A DNA stretch of 60,764 nt from an uncultured Alphaproteobacteria bacterium (GTDB lineage Bacteria; Pseudomonadota; Alphaproteobacteria; Caulobacterales; Hyphomonadaceae), in the NCBI GenBank assembly GCA_903831255.1, contig CAIKWZ010000065.1, positions 1 through 60,764 of the forward strand, read 5' to 3'. Below are positions 6,811-52,211 of the stretch, one piece after another. Each line of letters opens with the position of its first letter. The stretch's first letter is position 1. The notes below the pieces were generated by a model. It saw only the letters and a program-made list of their open reading frames with translations. It was not told the origin of the DNA and made no database searches. The translations under genes and the position numbers were made by a program.

Positions 6811-7706
6811 GAGGCGTCCTCGATCATCCAGCTGACCAGCGACGGATAGTCGATCCCAAGATAAGCCGCCTGCTCGGGAATGAGAGAGGTGGGCGTCATG
6901 CCTGGCTGTGTGTTGGTTTCGAGTATCACCAGTCGATCCGCTTGTTCGTCATACCTGAAATCCGATCGCGTCACGCCCCTGCAGCCGAGAGCCGTATGCG
7001 CACGGAGCGACGCATCGAGCGCCGCAGCAGTGACCCGGTCGGGAAGGGCTGCAGGCAACACATGACGAGACCCTCCGGCGTCATATTTTGCTTGGTAATC
7101 GTAATATTCCCTTAAAGTCGTGATCTCGGTCACAGCCATAGCTCGATCGCCCATCACGCCTACCGTGAGTTCGCGACCAGGAATAAAGGCCTCGACAAGA
7201 GCCCGACGCCCGAAACTCCAGGTTCCATCCGAGAGCTCTTTCGGAGGGCGGTTCGCGCCTTTTGGAATAATGCGAACGCCAAAACTCGAACCTTCCGCGA
7301 TCGGCTTGATCACATAGGGCGGGGCCATCACATGGTCCCGCGCGATATCCGCGAGCTCAAACACCCCGCCTTCGGCGATGTCGAGACCATGCTGGGCGTA
7401 AATCGCGCGGGCTTTGTCCTTGTCCATGGCGAGAGCGGAGGCCAGCACGCCTGAATGCGTGTAGGGAATGCCCAGTATTTCAAGAAGCCCCTGGACACAG
7501 CCGTCCTCCCCCCAGGGACCATGAAGCGCGTTGAGGACCACGTCGGGAGCGCACGCGCGCAACCGTTCCGCCAGGTCCCGATCAGCGTCGATCTCAATAA
7601 CGTCATAGTCCCGCGCTCGCGCAGCGGCGGCCATGCCTCGCCCCGAAGATAATGAGACGGGCCGTTCCGACGACCAGCCCCCGGCAATGACCGCGACCCG
7701 TTTCAT
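6798..7706 (-). CDS. ddl: D-alanine--D-alanine ligase
   Basis: The 302-aa ATP-grasp ligase makes the D-Ala-D-Ala dipeptide used by MurF. Signatures include [15 protein letters not shown] (substrate loop), the ATP-binding [11 protein letters not shown] and [13 protein letters not shown] (metal-binding Glu/Asn). The ATG at 7706 is preceded by GAGG at 6 nt. An in-frame TTG four codons earlier overlaps that ribosome-binding site and was rejected. It is the first gene of the right-hand dcw sub-operon. In related genomes murB usually lies immediately upstream, but here a 6.5-kb block intervenes, so ddl probably has its own promoter in the 124-bp divergent gap at 7707-7830. Confidence 0.96.
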
Positions 7707-46182: not shown

Positions 46183-46373
46183 GGTCGCTTCTCCTGAAAA
46201 TCCCGGATGCCCCTTCCAGCCCTGCACATGCCGGGACGGGACTATCGTCAAAATGCGAAGGCGGGTGATTAGGGGGATGACGCCTCAGAGTCAAGGGTGC
46301 GATAATCTGAACCATCAGCCCCCCAGGCTCCAGGCAAGCGCGCCCCGACCCTATCCTTCGCGGAAACCAAACC

Positions 46374-47192
46374 TCAGGGCTCCCCCTTGGACAAGTCCCG
46401 CACCTCCCGCTTTCGTCGTGCGTTCTCTTCAAGAAACCGCCGCATGGCTTCTCGGGGCTCCGTGGTGGCGTAGGCCGAGCCGAATGTATCGATGCCTGTC
46501 GCAATCGCGGCTCGAAGAGGTAAATCCTCCCACGAACGTATCAGCTGCTTCTGCAGAATGACGGCCCGGGGAGCACACTTAAAAAGACTTTCAACCCACT
46601 GATCGACAGCTTGATCCAGCATGCCGGGGGCGACAACGGTTTCAACCAAACCCCACGACTTCGCCTGGCTTGCGTCAAAGGTTTCCCCAAGCATCAGCAT
46701 CCATCGGGTTCGGCCCCACCCGACCAGCATTGGCAACAAGGCAGCCTCAACGACAGAAGGAATTCCCAACCTGACCTCGGGCATTCCAAACACCGAGGTA
46801 TCAGAACACGCCCTCAAATCACAGGCAGCGGCCAGTTCCAGGCCAGCGCCGAAAACATACCCGTTTATCCTGGCGATTGTGGGAACCGGAATCGCTCTGA
46901 CCGCATGGCAACACTGATGGACACGGTTTATAAAGCCGCGAGCCGAGGCCTCATCGTGAAGATCGCCCATTTCCGAGATATCGGCCCCTCCTACAAAGGC
47001 CTTTTCGCCCGCACCCGTAATGATCACGGCACGAACTTCCTCCATTTTCGCCACGGTGTCCGCCGCCGCGACAAAGGCCTCCATCAGCTTCGTGTTTAAC
47101 GAATTGAGGCGGGAAGAGTTGTCAATTTCAAGCGTGACCACCGATCCCTGATCTCGCTTTTCAAGATGCAGCCTGACCTGAGCATCGGCCAT
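46374..47192 (-). CDS. Enoyl-CoA hydratase/isomerase family protein
   Basis: The 272-aa crotonase-fold protein has the oxyanion-hole segments FVGGADISEM and INGYVFGAGLELAAACDLR. FGMPEVRLGIPSVVEAALLP follows, with a Glu at the position used for catalysis, and the C-terminal helices mediate trimerisation. It probably hydrates or isomerises an enoyl-CoA in fatty-acid or amino-acid breakdown; the exact substrate is unknown. The ATG at 47192 has AGGAG upstream. It stands alone, with rpmB downstream on the same strand. Confidence 0.9.
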   Translation of the reverse strand: MADAQVRLHLEKRDQGSVVTLEIDNSSRLNSLNTKLMEAFVAAADTVAKMEEVRAVIITGAGEKAFVGGADISEMGDLHDEASARGFINRVHQCCHAVRAIPVPTIARINGYVFGAGLELAAACDLRACSDTSVFGMPEVRLGIPSVVEAALLPMLVGWGRTRWMLMLGETFDASQAKSWGLVETVVAPGMLDQAVDQWVESLFKCAPRAVILQKQLIRSWEDLPLRAAIATGIDTFGSAYATTEPREAMRRFLEENARRKREVRDLSKGEP

Positions 47193-47714
47193 CGCCAATC
47201 TCCTATTGTGACGAAGGACAACCGTTTCATGCGAAGAAACGTACGACAATCGAAGAATAGAGAAAGACAGGGATCCTCGCCGGAAGGTCGACGGAGAGGC
47301 CGCTGCGAGAAGAAGAGTTCATAACGCTGCGGCAAAGCAGAAGCACCCATAGTCCCGGAGCTGGTAGGATAATGCGAACACAGGCCCTGCGGGATAAACT
47401 CGCCGAATCCCCGCTTCGAGGGCCTGCAGGCATGAGGATGCCTCCTGAGGCAGGATCGAACGCCGGATCAAACAAAGCAGGAAACGGACCAGGACAGATA
47501 AAAACCATCGATTCCAGATAGATGGATGAGGCCCCACCATTCGATGAATTGCGATAGGGAGAAGAACCATAAGGCGACGTCGACGGTCTTGAGCAGGCGC
47601 GCCTAACAAAACGCCCAAGGTCCCTCTGCGGAAAAGGCCTTTCATAAATCCCCGCCTTGCCTTCAAACACGTATCAGGTCGCATCCGAGTTCGGATGCTG
47701 CAGGAGTTATCGCT
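47193..47714. other. Longest gene-poor gap, divergent between the crotonase and helicase genes
   Basis: Over 520 bp carry no recognisable gene. Two overlapping minus-strand reading frames cover most of it; one of them (47319-47645) has a fair ribosome-binding site and is listed separately. An AGGAG at 47702-47706 serves the apparent CTG start of the helicase. Composition looks less strongly GC-biased at third positions than in the flanking genes. Confidence 0.4.
47319..47645 (-). CDS. Possible small hydrophobic protein (doubtful)
   Basis: The candidate is 108 aa, starting MKGLFRRGTLGVLLGAP. It has a hydrophobic central part (MVLLPIAIHRMVG, FLSVLVRFLLCLI), several cysteines and a hydrophobic C terminus. 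GGCGGGG lies just before the ATG, similar to the site used by the amidohydrolase gene. I recognise no family, and an equally long frame overlaps it, so it may be chance or the remains of a gene. Confidence 0.2.
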   Translation of the reverse strand: MKGLFRRGTLGVLLGAPAQDRRRRLMVLLPIAIHRMVGPHPSIWNRWFLSVLVRFLLCLIRRSILPQEASSCLQALEAGIRRVYPAGPVFALSYQLRDYGCFCFAAAL

Positions 47715-50312
47715 CTGGTTTCTGTCCGCGCTGTCCTTGGTCCGACCAATACTGGAAAGACACACCTCGCTGTGGAGCGTCTGCTCGCGCACGGCACCGG
47801 CATGATCGGATTGCCGCTCCGCCTGCTAGCGCGGGAAATCTATGACCGAATGGTGCGCCAGAAGGGCGAACGGGCATGTGCGCTGGTGACAGGCGAGGAA
47901 CGTATCATCCCGCCAGGCGCCCGATACTTCTCCTGCACGGTTGAAGCGATGCCGATCTCAGAGGGCGCGGACTTCATCGCCATTGACGAAATACAGCTCG
48001 CCGCAGACCCCGACCGCGGCCATGTCTTCACTGAGCGGATCCTGCATGCGCGGGGACGACACGAGACCATGCTTCTCGGAGCCGATACGATGCGCCCGGC
48101 CCTTCAGTCGCTACGCCTCGACATCGATACGGAAAGGCGGGAAAGGTTTTCAAAACTGTCTTATGTCGGCCCAGTCAAGATCACCAAACTGCCGAAGCGC
48201 TCCGCGATTGTCGCTTTCTCAGCCGAGGAGGTTTATGCGATTGCGGAGCTTCTCAAGCGACAGAGGGGCGGGTGCGCAGTCATCATGGGCGCTCTTTCGC
48301 CGCGTACCCGCAATGCACAGGTGGATCTCTTCCAGTCCGGCGAAGTTGACTACATCGTCGCGACAGACGCCATTGGGATGGGCTTGAACCTTGATGTCGG
48401 CCACATCGCCTTCGCAAGCCGACGAAAATTCGATGGCCGACGAAGACGACTTTTGAGAGCCGATGAAGCTGCGCAGATCGCAGGCAGAGCGGGCCGCTTC
48501 AGGGATGACGGAACCTTCGGCGAAACAGCCGATTGCGAGCCGTTCGAACCAGAAATGGTCGACCAGATGACCGAGCATCGGTTTGACCCGGCCGAAACTC
48601 TCAACTGGCGAAATCACGATCTGGACTGGTCGAGCCTCGACGCCTTGCAGGCTTCCCTTCGTCGACCGGCGCCGCATCATGTGCTCAGACGCGCGCCTGA
48701 TGCACTGGATGAGACGACCCTCGCCGCCTTCGCTCAGGATGAAGACACCTGCCGCAGGATCAGGTCTCGCAACCATGTCAGGCGATTATGGGACCTGTGC
48801 ACCCTACCGGATTTCAGAAAATCCGGACCAGAGGCGCACCTGAAACTCGTCGCCTCCTTAGTCGAGCGACTTCTTGAACCTTCCTCAAGGCTCAAGGATG
48901 AATGGATCCATACCCAGGTTGAGCGTCTCAACAGGACCGAGGGCGATATTGACACTCTCCAGCAGCGACTATCCGCGATAAGGACATGGACGTATGCGTC
49001 CAACCGGCAGGACTGGATTGAAAACGCTCAGACCTGGAGGCAGCGCACACGCGAAATCGAAGACAGGCTATCGGACGCGCTGCATGAGCGACTGATGCAG
49101 CGCTTCGTCGATCGTCGAACATCGGCGCTTCTGAAATCACTCAACTCGGACGTACATGAACCGGCGGAAATCGGAGCAGAGGGGCGCGTGATCGTCAGTG
49201 GTCACGACGTCGGTCGTCTTGAGGGACTGAGATTCAGTCAGGACATACCCGCATCCGGAGGAGGCCAGTCTCTGGAAGGACGAGCCTTGCGCAGCGCTGC
49301 CGTCAAGGCTCTGCGTCCCGTCCTTGAACAGCGACTGAATGCCATTGCAAGCGCAGTGGACGACGCTCTGGACATCGATCCCCTGACCGCAGAGATCCTG
49401 CATCTGCAGGCGCCTGTGGCGCGCTTAACCCCATCATCCGACTGGTTGAACCCGGGCATAGAGCTGCTGGGGGGAGCATCAACGTCTTCAGGACTTCAGG
49501 AACGGGCAGTCGAACGGCTTCGTCTGTGGACGAACGAGCACGTCCGCAATCGTCTTCGAACACTGTTCGTGATTCGGGATGAACTGAAGACAGGCGCCAT
49601 CTCAGGCATTGCACGGGGATTGGCCTACCAGTTGACGGAACGGGGGGCCGTTCTGGACAGACGACAGTCAGCTTCGCCAGACAACCGGCCTCATCCGACC
49701 GCGGCGGACAACGTCGCGCTGGCGGGCCTTGGTGTCAGGGTCGGCGCCAAGAGCGTTTTTATCCCCGAACTGCTAAAACGTTCCTCCCGCCAGACGGCTC
49801 TGATCCTGCGAGCAGTCCAGGACGCAACGTCCATCCGGCCGGCCCCTCAAGCCGCGTCATTTTCTCTTCGTAATCCGCCGGCCGGAGAACCACCCTGGTC
49901 CGACCCCCTGCTGGCCGCTGCAGGATACCTCCGCGTCGGCCAGCGAGCGGTGCGTGCGGACATGTGTGAGCGGCTGGCGGTGGAACTCTTCAAAACGCGC
50001 CAGAAGGCCGGACAGTCGGCGTTCTGCCCTCCCCCCTCTCTGGCTGCGCTGATCGGCTGTCCCGGGGAGGAGTTTCCAGACGTCCTCAGAGGACTGGGCC
50101 TGAAACCAGCCCGAAAGGGTCCCGACGGAAAAACTGTCGAACTCTGGCGCTTCGCTTCGACAGGCCGCCCGGGAAAAAGGCCTGAGACGACCTCAGATCT
50201 GACCCGTTCAGACAGCCCGTTTGCATCGCTTGCGGTTCTGCTCGATCCTCCCACAGCCACGGAAGGACGAAAGCCTCGACGGCGGGGGCGCGGCAAACGG
50301 GCAGCGTCATGA
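47715..50312 (+). CDS. SUV3-like ATP-dependent RNA helicase, apparent CTG start
   Basis: The 865-aa superfamily 2 helicase is related to mitochondrial SUV3. Motifs are Walker A GPTNTGKT (9-16), DEIQ box (about 91-94), GALSPRTRNAQVDLF, VATDAIGMGLN and QIAGRAGRF, followed by a long helical C-terminal region and a basic tail. The first ATG/GTG/TTG in frame is a GTG at 47772, downstream of Walker A. The frame is open to a TAA at 47604. AGGAG at 47702-47706 is 8 nt before a CTG at 47715, giving the family-like N terminus VSVRAVLGPTNTGKT. It overlaps the S4-domain gene by 4 nt. Likely role: RNA decay or processing. Confidence 0.85.
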   Translation: MVSVRAVLGPTNTGKTHLAVERLLAHGTGMIGLPLRLLAREIYDRMVRQKGERACALVTGEERIIPPGARYFSCTVEAMPISEGADFIAIDEIQLAADPDRGHVFTERILHARGRHETMLLGADTMRPALQSLRLDIDTERRERFSKLSYVGPVKITKLPKRSAIVAFSAEEVYAIAELLKRQRGGCAVIMGALSPRTRNAQVDLFQSGEVDYIVATDAIGMGLNLDVGHIAFASRRKFDGRRRRLLRADEAAQIAGRAGRFRDDGTFGETADCEPFEPEMVDQMTEHRFDPAETLNWRNHDLDWSSLDALQASLRRPAPHHVLRRAPDALDETTLAAFAQDEDTCRRIRSRNHVRRLWDLCTLPDFRKSGPEAHLKLVASLVERLLEPSSRLKDEWIHTQVERLNRTEGDIDTLQQRLSAIRTWTYASNRQDWIENAQTWRQRTREIEDRLSDALHERLMQRFVDRRTSALLKSLNSDVHEPAEIGAEGRVIVSGHDVGRLEGLRFSQDIPASGGGQSLEGRALRSAAVKALRPVLEQRLNAIASAVDDALDIDPLTAEILHLQAPVARLTPSSDWLNPGIELLGGASTSSGLQERAVERLRLWTNEHVRNRLRTLFVIRDELKTGAISGIARGLAYQLTERGAVLDRRQSASPDNRPHPTAADNVALAGLGVRVGAKSVFIPELLKRSSRQTALILRAVQDATSIRPAPQAASFSLRNPPAGEPPWSDPLLAAAGYLRVGQRAVRADMCERLAVELFKTRQKAGQSAFCPPPSLAALIGCPGEEFPDVLRGLGLKPARKGPDGKTVELWRFASTGRPGKRPETTSDLTRSDSPFASLAVLLDPPTATEGRKPRRRGRGKRAAS

Positions 50313-50671
50313 GGCTGGATGTTTGGTTATGGCGCGCCCGGTTCTTCAAGACCAGATCGCTAGCGGCGACCGCCATCGCAGATCAGGGCCTCCGTATCGA
50401 ACGCCAGGGCCAGGTGCGTCGCGTGTCAAAGCCCGCCATCGAAATCGCCCACGGAGATATCCTGTCGTTTGTATCCCACGGACGTGCAATCCTCATCCGG
50501 ATCCGCTCGCTCCCCGAACGCCGGGGCCCGGCGCCTGAGGCGGCTGCAACCTATGAATCTCTCCTGGCGAACTCCGACAGCGGGCCGACACCCGGCGCTG
50601 CTCACAAAAGGGAGCCCAAATACGAATCGAACGGCCCGGACCTAGACGGCTCAATTGACAACACCGGCTGA
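50309..50671 (+). CDS. S4-domain RNA-binding protein (Hsp15-like)
   Basis: The 120-aa protein has an N-terminal S4 domain (about 1-70: MRLDVWLWRARFFKTRSLAATAI, IEIAHGDILSF) and a disordered acidic/Pro tail. The S4 fold binds structured RNA; Hsp15 recycles stalled 50S subunits, and this is the nearest characterised relative. The ATG overlaps the helicase stop (ATGA), so it is translated from the same mRNA and may share a ribosome- or RNA-quality role with the helicase. Confidence 0.88.
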   Translation: MRLDVWLWRARFFKTRSLAATAIADQGLRIERQGQVRRVSKPAIEIAHGDILSFVSHGRAILIRIRSLPERRGPAPEAAATYESLLANSDSGPTPGAAHKREPKYESNGPDLDGSIDNTG

Positions 50672-50711
50672 CGGCGTCATGTCCGCGGCAGCATCGAGAT
50701 CCTGAGCCAAC

Positions 50712-51053
50712 ATGACTTACATCGTCACCGACGCCTGCATTCGCTGCAAATACATGGACTGCGTGGAGGTATGTCCGGTGGACTGCTTCTACGAAGGCGA
50801 GAACATGCTGGTGATCAACCCCGATGAGTGCATCGACTGCGGGGTCTGCCAGCCTGAATGCCCCGTTGAGGCGATCGTTCCCGACACAGAAGACGAGGCC
50901 GACGGCAAGTGGCTGAAATTGAATGCGGAATTCGCTAAATCCTGGCCTAACATCACAGTAAAGGGAGAGCCGCCGGCGGATGCCGACGACTACTCTCAGG
51001 TCCGCCAGAAGCTTTCGAGCCTGTTTTCACCCAAGCCGGCGACCCGCGACTGA
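50712..51053 (+). CDS. fdxA: 7Fe-8S ferredoxin FdxA
   Basis: The 113-aa ferredoxin is close to Azotobacter FdI in the first 60 residues. Cysteines are at 9, 12, 17, 21, 25, 40, 43, 46 and 50 ([17 protein letters not shown] and [12 protein letters not shown]), a pattern that holds one 3Fe-4S and one 4Fe-4S cluster. The C-terminal half ([13 protein letters not shown]) is also typical. It serves as a low-potential electron carrier. It lies 40 bp after the S4 gene, and carD follows at 205 bp. The ribosome-binding site is poor. Confidence 0.95.
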
Positions 51054-51257
51054 GGCGAAATGCCGCAACACGGCATAAAAGGCCCATTCCTGTGTCCTGG
51101 CGACAACGGGTTGAAAATTCTTGAGATTGTGATAAGCCACTCTCACCGCCGGCGAGCGGTCGTTTTACGCTTAAGCTCAGGGATTTCAGATCGCGCACTG
51201 ACATTGTGAGCGGCGAGGAGACGTCGTCTTCGCATGCAAGTAAGAGGGTAAAAGAGT

Positions 51258-51782
51258 ATGTCGAAAAAGCAGCCGCCCAAGATTGCAGACGGAACTTACA
51301 GCGTAGGCCAGCATGTGGTGTATCCGGCGCACGGCGTCGGCCGCGTCACGGGCGTCGAAACACAGCAAGTGGCTGGAATGAGCCTTGAAGTCTATGTGGT
51401 TGCATTCGAGCAGGACAAACTCATTCTTCGGGTGCCGATCGCCAAGGCGACGTCCTCGGGCATGAGGCCTCTGGCCTCTGCGCGTATCGTGGGAGACGCT
51501 CTCAAGACCCTCGGCGGCCGGGCGCGCATCAAGCGGACCATGTGGAGCCGACGCGCTCAGGAGTATGAAGCGAAGATCAACTCCGGCAACCTGATTTCGA
51601 TTGCAGAAGTGGTTCGTGACCTTCATCGTGCGGAGGATCAGCCAGACCAGTCCTATTCCGAACGGCAGCTCTATGAATCGGCGCTCGACCGTATGGCCCG
51701 CGAACTGGCCGCTGTTGAGAATATCAAGCACGCCGAGGCTGTTGAAAAGCTGTCGAAGTCTCTTGCGAAACGTGCGGCCTGA
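51258..51782 (+). CDS. carD: CarD/CdnL-family transcriptional regulator
   Basis: The 174-aa protein has an N-terminal RNA-polymerase-interacting Tudor-like domain (about 12-70: YSVGQHVVYPAHGVGRVTGVE, LILRVPIAKA) and a C-terminal helical DNA-binding domain (about 80-165: WSRRAQEYEAKINSGN, DRMARELAAVE). CarD/CdnL binds the polymerase beta subunit and stabilises open promoter complexes, notably at rRNA promoters. The order fdxA-carD is conserved in alphaproteobacteria. GAGG precedes the ATG and a strong terminator follows. Confidence 0.94.
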   Translation: MSKKQPPKIADGTYSVGQHVVYPAHGVGRVTGVETQQVAGMSLEVYVVAFEQDKLILRVPIAKATSSGMRPLASARIVGDALKTLGGRARIKRTMWSRRAQEYEAKINSGNLISIAEVVRDLHRAEDQPDQSYSERQLYESALDRMARELAAVENIKHAEAVEKLSKSLAKRAA

Positions 51783-51814
51783 CACGCGGTTGTCCACTTG
51801 ATCGGAACAGATTG

Positions 51815-51838
51815 AGGCGCCCTCGGGGGCGCCTTTTT
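51815..51838 (+). terminator. Intrinsic terminator after carD
   Basis: The stem AGGCGCCC / GGGCGCCT (8 bp) closes on a stable TCGG loop and runs directly into TTTTT. It lies 33 bp after the carD stop. This is the clearest plus-strand terminator in the window. Confidence 0.9.
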
Positions 51839-51873
51839 CTTTGGTCACCCGGAGGCCGGGGCTCAGCCGGTCG

Positions 51874-51975
51874 TTCCGCCTGACAGGGCGGAAGGGAAAC
51901 GTCGCGTGATCAAAACCTGAGTTCACGAGGCCCCCCCAAGTCGGCGCTGCGCCGACGGGTCGGTAACAACCCGAC
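51874..51975. repeat. Cluster of three hairpins before tRNA-Arg
   Basis: Three inverted repeats follow one another. They are TTCCGCC/GGCGGAA (51874-51893, 6-nt loop), GTCGGCG/CGCCGAC (51940-51956, 3-nt loop) and GTCGG/CCGAC (51959-51975). The region between the carD terminator and the tRNA has no gene. The hairpins could be part of a small structured RNA or simply boundary structure. Confidence 0.4.
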
Positions 51976-52134
51976 GGATCCCGCACATGTGCGCAACCTC
52001 GACAGAAGAGCGATTGCGCCGCATCAAACCAAAGCCAGCCCGATCAAAGCCGAACCCGCCGACAGTGCGCCGCCACGAAAGCTTAAGGAGGCGCTTGGCT
52101 AAGGGGGCGATTAATGGGCATAAGGGCGCTAGCT

Positions 52135-52211
<77 letters not shown>

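What the first reader, a model, noticed from the sequence alone, without database searches (positions are those of the whole stretch)
47604..47780. SUV3-like helicase gene has no ATG/GTG/TTG start that includes its Walker A motif; a CTG start is indicated
The P-loop GPTNTGKT is encoded at 47739-47762, upstream of the first conventional in-frame start (GTG 47772). The frame is open back to TAA at 47604 with only ATC and CTG as near-cognate starts. A good AGGAG (47702-47706) sits 8 nt before CTG 47715, and initiation there yields the expected short family N terminus. Automated annotation would truncate the protein and remove its ATPase motif. Low initiation efficiency may be a deliberate brake on the helicase, S4 and downstream genes.
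Basis: partly seen in the sequence, partly recalled or inferred. Interest (0 to 1): 0.72.

Follow-up and report, generated by a model that had tools for sequence, protein, structure and literature searches.

The report
Conserved CTG start of Suv3-like helicase
A genus of uncultured bacteria appears to start an RNA-helicase gene with CTG, one of the weakest and rarest bacterial start codons, so gene-finders limited to the usual starts would cut off the enzyme's ATP-binding site and miss a possible translational brake.

Summary
The window lies in an uncultured genus; its nearest named records are alphaproteobacterial and Hyphomonadaceae MAGs. In 12 of the 13 genus members with the gene, the Suv3-like helicase has CTG exactly 8 nt after GGAG and no ATG/GTG/TTG at that place; the 13th has GTG there. 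GGAG and NTG are invariant in 13 of 13 while the leader around them varies. A neighbouring genus has CTG, another TTG; 82 of 85 family members read outside the genus have ATG. Sequencing error, upstream ATC, frameshift from ATG 47696 and starts lacking Walker A are rejected. In a sample of 254 orthologous ORF pairs, only infC (the textbook case) and this helicase have conserved protein before the first conventional start, so CTG use looks gene-specific. The 'brake' is plausible but unproven: CTG was kept although one mutation gives ATG, GTG or TTG, which recalls infC and pcnB, but chance or compensation by the strong SD is not excluded. Control by IF3 is a testable inference. No expression data exist here.

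The parts
47702..47706 (+). Shine-Dalgarno AGGAG (GGAG 47703-47706 invariant in the genus)
   Evidence: GGAG at -12..-9 in 13 of 13 genus members, spacing exactly 8 nt
47715..47717 (+). CTG start codon of the helicase gene
   Evidence: CTG in 12 of 13 genus members, GTG in the 13th; CTG in genus g10 and TTG in genus g7
47715..50312 (+). Suv3-like helicase, 865 aa from CTG, stop TGA
   Evidence: Pfam DEXQc_Suv3 1.8e-28, aa 8-134; Helicase_C 2.1e-10; PDB 6f4a Suv3 helicase 4.1e-41
47739..47762 (+). Walker A / P-loop GPTNTGKT
   Evidence: same eight residues in the 12 CTG genus members
47772..47774 (+). GTG that start-codon-limited annotation would choose; judged not the start
   Evidence: GTG in only 5 of 12 genus members (others GTC/GTT)
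47604..47606 (+). in-frame upstream stop TAA
47696..47698 (+). out-of-frame ATG, rejected as a start
   Evidence: alignment: present only in the window and L003
50309..50671 (+). S4-domain (Hsp15-like) gene; its ATG overlaps the helicase stop (ATGA)
   Evidence: an ATG/GTG in the S4 frame overlaps the helicase stop in 9 of 11 genus loci; in G007 and G013 the S4 homology starts 192 and 223 nt further on
50712..51053 (+). ferredoxin FdxA
   Evidence: NF045490 7e-51; for order
51258..51782 (+). CarD-family regulator
   Evidence: CarD_C 8.7e-25; for order
46374..47249 (-). divergent enoyl-CoA hydratase gene, upstream neighbour (not part of the unit)
   Evidence: of the 13 relatives' loci checked it was matched upstream only in G014; seven of those loci hold only about 1.5 kb upstream

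Best explanation
Translation of the Suv3-like helicase starts at CTG 47715. The 30S subunit is placed by GGAG 8 nt upstream, and initiator tRNA reads CUG with a first-position mismatch, giving a short Met-VSVRAVL-GPTNTGKT amino end like that of relatives. The start site is well supported by comparison (confidence below). Inferred and less sure (about 0.5): the poor start is kept because it holds the helicase, and by stop/start overlap the S4 protein, at a low level. Inferred and untested (about 0.25): because initiation at CUG is proofread by IF3, output may follow IF3 level, together with infC, which in this genus also has a non-canonical start (ATA or ATC).
For:: the 12 genus homologues with an unbroken N-terminal frame share CTG and have no ATG/GTG/TTG at the family start position. 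GGAG 13/13, NTG 13/13, leader otherwise about 0-1 bit per site; in L006 a TAG lies six codons before CTG and the codons between are not start-like; CTG is the only start-like codon shared by all 12; genus g10 has AGGAG-7-CTG, g7 TTG with GAGG-8, and 82 of 85 non-genus family members read have ATG. CTG rows form one clade (13 rows, SH-aLRT only 76); of 56 invariant Leu columns only 1 keeps one codon in all 12, so CTG is not kept merely as a Leu codon; only infC and the helicase show conserved protein upstream of the first conventional start. For the brake: 1 of 123 fourfold sites is unchanged in the same 12 genomes. Literature: CUG is 0.024% of bacterial starts and 0.86% as efficient as AUG (PMC11497404, part 1 of 7 read); of 61,358 ancestral AUG starts 2 switched to CUG (PMC5622118, passages).
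Against: No ribosome profiling, mass spectrometry or reporter data. Judged as Leu CTG/TTG the first base is less telling: 32 of 56 invariant Leu columns also keep it unchanged. One genus member (G003) has GTG, in a gene with an internal deletion and frameshift in its assembly, and g7 has TTG: stronger starts are tolerated somewhere. A GTG two codons before the P-loop, which would keep Walker A, exists in L007, L009 and L010 and L033. A reporter with a CUG start gave no detectable product in chloroplasts or E. coli in one study (PMC9845219, passages), and an SD-CUG in Caulobacter dnaA is not used in vivo (PMC8443254, passages). IF3 dependence is untested.
Confidence: 0.93

Rival explanations
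1. CTG is the start, but it is kept by chance or by local compensation (strong SD, good context) and has no regulatory meaning.
For: SD is invariant and well spaced, which could compensate; GTG in G003 and TTG in g7 show the site can change; the first base is unchanged in 32 of 56 invariant Leu columns too.
Against: If ATG, GTG, TTG and CTG were equal, the first base should vary like a fourfold site: 1 of 123 such sites is unchanged in the same 12 genomes. AUG is held by purifying selection across prokaryotes (PMC5622118, abstract in listing and passages).
Confidence: 0.4
2. Sequencing or assembly error: a true ATG/GTG/TTG at 47715 or an indel that joins ATG 47696 to the frame.
For: The window is from a draft assembly (76 contigs).
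Against: Same CTG in 11 further genus assemblies whose proteins are 64-88% identical; ATG 47696 only in the window and L003.
Confidence: 0.01
3. Start at upstream ATC 47709, or another upstream near-cognate codon.
For: ATC is two codons upstream in the window and L003.
Against: Only 2 nt from the SD; the codon is not ATC in the ten other CTG members; only CTG is shared by all 12.
Confidence: 0.02
4. The protein really starts downstream (GTG 47772 or later) without Walker A, a degenerate helicase.
For: GTG 47772 is the first conventional start.
Against: GTG at that codon in 5 of 12 only; P-loop residues are the same in all 12 with synonymous changes, so the stretch is translated and under selection.
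Confidence: 0.01
5. Ribosomes reach the frame by programmed frameshift or read-through from an upstream reading frame.
For: None specific; out-of-frame ATG 47696 in two members.
Against: In-frame stops lie at different places and the upstream ORFs differ between the loci looked at. Shared upstream frames were not searched for systematically.
Confidence: 0.02

Closest known systems
infC (IF3) with AUU/AUC/AUA start
   Same: Conserved non-canonical start after a good SD. In this genus infC starts at ATC in 9 and ATA in 3 of 12 genomes read, the window's own genome having ATA; the same blind scan finds it.
   Different: CUG instead of AUN; the product is an RNA helicase, so direct self-feedback is not expected. 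Autocontrol of infC is recalled, with titles seen in the reference list of PMC9845219.
pcnB (poly(A) polymerase) of E. coli with AUU start
   Same: RNA-decay enzyme gene translationally limited by an inefficient start (Binns and Masters 2002, title seen in the reference list of PMC5601948).
   Different: Other codon, gene family and bacterial class; shown by experiment there, not here.
Mitochondrial SUPV3L1/Suv3 helicase
   Same: Same helicase core by sequence.
   Different: The match covers residues 8-292 of 865 at most; the bacterial protein has a very short amino end before the P-loop. Its function in bacteria was not tested here.
CUG in the Caulobacter dnaA leader
   Same: An SD-CUG forms an initiation complex in vitro (PMC8443254, passages).
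   Different: There AUG is the start and CUG is not used in vivo; here no AUG exists.

Membership tests
Suv3-type (DExQ) RNA helicase | DEXQc_Suv3 domain above Pfam cut-off | tested here: met
   99.5 bits, cut-off 27
Suv3-type (DExQ) RNA helicase | complete Walker A in the predicted product | tested here: met
   GPTNTGKT follows CTG in frame
Suv3-type (DExQ) RNA helicase | ATP-dependent RNA unwinding | not testable with these tools
   no biochemistry
genes with a conserved non-canonical start (infC/pcnB kind) | no ATG/GTG/TTG at the family start position | tested here: met
   none there in the 12 CTG members; GTG codons elsewhere in L007, L009, L010 (2 codons before the P-loop) and L010 (inside the SD) are not shared
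genes with a conserved non-canonical start (infC/pcnB kind) | start codon and SD conserved against a variable leader | tested here: met
   the 13th genus member has GTG
genes with a conserved non-canonical start (infC/pcnB kind) | initiation at that codon in cells | not testable with these tools
   needs proteomics or ribosome profiling
IF3-controlled genes | expression falls as IF3 rises | not testable with these tools
   inference only

The most novel reading that the evidence does not exclude
The helicase operon (Suv3-like helicase, Hsp15-like S4 protein, ferredoxin, CarD) is wired to initiation fidelity: its CUG start makes helicase and S4 output a read-out of free IF3, so RNA decay and ribosome-associated repair rise with infC when IF3 runs short. 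A clade of bacteria fixed this control by moving from ATG, perhaps through TTG or GTG, to CTG.
Probability: 0.25. Interest if true: 0.72.

Novelty: new member of a known kind. Interest (0 to 1): 0.55.

Why it matters
CUG is among the rarest annotated bacterial starts and gives under 1% of AUG output in E. coli reporters (PMC11497404, part 1 read). A genus-wide CUG on a conserved enzyme gene is a natural experiment on why a cell would keep a bad start, and gives a second gene besides infC in the same genomes to test IF3 sensing. It also shows a practical annotation fault: a gene finder limited to ATG/GTG/TTG would drop the Walker A motif from this helicase in the window and in most of the genus members read.

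Tried and rejected
Rejected readings: sequencing error; ATC 47709; ATG 47696 with an indel or frameshift; GTG 47772; fusion with an upstream gene. Relaxed initiator tRNA as the cause: the anticodon arm GTCAGGCTCATAACCTGAAGG (A-U for the first of three G-C pairs; pair numbering recalled) is in 16 of 20 genomes searched, including ATG-start genera g4 and g6, so it does not track CTG; in G005, G011, G016 and G022 the pattern had no match. RNA structure around the start: no signal, z -0.79 to 0.93 in the 13 genus members. Rfam: only a tRNA in 46200-52200. Consensus promoter scan: none in 47150-47850. General use of CTG in the genome: not supported by the sample. First scan: 16 of 234 pairs flagged before overlaps were removed, 8 of 187 after; second scan 5 of 254. 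I judged the flagged ones other than the helicase and infC by eye to be antisense shadows or genes with an ATG a few codons on. Caveat: this covers one 564-kb contig of G013 and the 61-kb window against 1.2 Mb of G019, not whole genomes. A first infC regex failed; one search read part of the 20 loci, and read 17 of 20 usefully (L231, L232 not read, L244 a wrong frame). It also corrected my first count of the S4 overlap from 11 of 11 to 9 of 11. Paper searches for CTG/CUG or non-AUG starts, or Suv3 in bacteria, listed nothing on this gene; the library is open-access PMC only, and listings were cut at 10-20 rows.

Full report
Observation. Between the in-frame TAA at 47604 and the P-loop GPTNTGKT at 47739-47762 there is no ATG, GTG or TTG; the start-like codons are ATC, ATC and CTG. 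AGGAG at 47702-47706 stands 8 nt before CTG 47715. The first conventional start, GTG 47772, gives an 846-aa product without Walker A. The product from CTG is 865 aa and matches Pfam DEXQc_Suv3 (1.8e-28, residues 8-134) and Helicase_C, and solved Suv3/SUPV3L1 helicases (best 4.1e-41).

Where it is. The window is contig 65 of a 3.3-Mb, 76-contig genome. In a scan of named genomes the six nearest records are MAGs titled Alphaproteobacteria bacterium (three, one of them from ErkenSummer), Hyphomonadaceae bacterium (two) and plain bacterium (one). The genus (g1) holds 15 genomes here; 13 have the gene and the N terminus can be read in all 13. G006's copy runs off its contig further on.

Relatives. 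In 12 of those 13 there is CTG at one and the same place, with GGAG exactly 8 nt before; in the thirteenth (G003) it is GTG at that place, in a copy that has an internal deletion and frameshift in its assembly. Anchored on this codon, GGAG and NTG are invariant in 13 of 13, the base at -14 is also invariant, and the rest of the 60-nt leader is at about 1 bit per site or less. An in-frame GGAG-8-[C/G]TG is expected in 0.018 of 13 shuffled leaders, at most 1 in 2000 rounds; relatedness makes this generous. In L006 a TAG stands six codons before CTG and no start-like codon lies between, so translation cannot start further up there. Against a clean picture: GTG codons two codons before the P-loop exist in L007, L009, L010 and L033, and one inside the SD of L010; they are not shared by the others.

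Outside the genus. Genus g10 (one genome, G023) has AGGAG, 7 nt, CTG; g7 (one genome, G020) has GAGG, 8 nt, TTG. Of 85 family homologues outside g1 that I read, 82 have an in-frame ATG 6-25 codons before the P-loop. The other three are g7, g10 and one of three g2 genomes (G015, with TTG 13 codons before). One search listed 87 non-g1 genomes with hits; G116 was not fetched and G101 had only a weak hit. In 22 genomes of the rest of the order, 19 had a readable motif: 16 with such an ATG, 3 with GTG 21-22 codons before. In a quick helicase tree of 31 rows (G003 not included) the CTG rows are one clade (SH-aLRT 76, so weak), g7 with TTG lies beside them, and the other rows are ATG but for G015. 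G023 falls inside the g1 rows, on a 291-aa piece with low support.

Is it kept as a start or as leucine? Of 56 columns that are Leu in all 12 CTG genus members, one keeps the same codon in all 12, and three keep the third base. So CTG is not kept as an ordinary Leu codon. Is it kept as a weak start? If any NTG were as good, the first base should vary like a fourfold site: mean 3.4 changes, 1 of 123 unchanged. Against that, the first base of ordinary Leu codons is unchanged in 32 of 56 columns, and G003 and g7 show GTG and TTG. I read this as moderate support for selection on the weak start.

Is it one gene or many? I compared stop-to-stop ORFs of the window and one 564-kb contig of G013 with 1.2 Mb of the ATG-start relative G019. 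Among 254 non-overlapping reciprocal pairs (217 + 37), five had six or more identical residues before the first conventional start: infC in G013, the helicase in both genomes, and two genes that I judged to start at a normal ATG. Direct reading of infC in the 12 genus members tried gives ATC in 9 and ATA in 3 (G000, G014, G008), each after GGAG, GGGAG or similar; G010 also has a TTG two codons before its ATC. G019, G020, G022, G023 and G034 have ATA, G026 too. So the scan finds the textbook case unprompted, and in the sample the helicase is the only other one. The initiator tRNA lacks the first of the three G-C pairs in 16 of 20 family genomes searched, ATG-start genera included, so it is not the cause, though it may make the family more tolerant (inference).

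Surroundings. Helicase, S4/Hsp15-like gene, FdxA and CarD follow each other in the genus loci long enough to show them, while the upstream ORFs differ (the short G002 locus shows S4 only, and the G007, G010 and G011 loci end before CarD). An ATG or GTG in the S4 frame overlaps the helicase stop in 9 of 11 genus loci; in G007 and G013 it does not. S4 translation is probably coupled to the helicase in the nine (inference). No structure, Rfam family or consensus promoter marks the leader.

Mechanism. Shown by comparison: start site and SD. Inferred from known biology: fMet-tRNA reads CUG poorly; CUG gives 0.86% of AUG output and makes up 0.024% of starts (PMC11497404, part 1 of 7 read); AUG to CUG switches are 2 in 61,358 (PMC5622118, passages). 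One study saw no product from CUG in chloroplasts or E. coli (PMC9845219, passages), so context must matter. A weak start may hold a helicase low, as AUU does for pcnB (title in the reference list of PMC5601948). IF3 guards start-codon choice (PMC11497404, part 1; its rejection of such codons at infC is recalled), so the level could follow IF3.

Known or new. Fixed non-canonical starts are known: six conserved genes in Listeria monocytogenes, including infC and rnhC (PMC13068326, passages). My searches listed no paper on this gene. I file it as a new member of a known kind, notable for the codon, the gene and the depth of conservation.

Noticed in passing
infC loci L227, L228, L230, L235-L238, L240-L243, L245 (genus); L229, L233, L234, L239, L246 (family): infC starts at ATC in 9 and ATA in 3 of 12 genus genomes, and at ATA in the five other family genomes read; an ATA/ATC switch inside one genus.
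   Followed up: partly
L221 1471-1547 (G000 contig 58): Initiator tRNA has A-U in place of the first of the three conserved anticodon-stem G-C pairs; same arm in 16 of 20 family genomes searched.
   Followed up: partly
L028 (G015, genus g2), start region: This helicase also lacks ATG: TTG 13 codons before the P-loop, and ATA about where its sister genome has ATG. Possibly a second, independent loss of ATG.
   Followed up: no
L032/L033 (G003); G023 and G035 helicase loci: Helicase gene found in pieces, with a deletion and frameshift in G003; may be assembly errors or real decay.
   Followed up: partly
about 45-60 nt upstream of CTG in L006, L009-L012, L014, L033: Short GC-rich inverted repeat, seen by eye, often followed by CGCCTGATC; could be an upstream terminator or a leader hairpin.
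   Followed up: no
window 6829-6831 (minus strand): Codons for LDDRGR just before an ATG start are conserved with G019 (8 of 10 aligned residues); probably SD or overlap constraint, possibly another early CTG.
   Followed up: no
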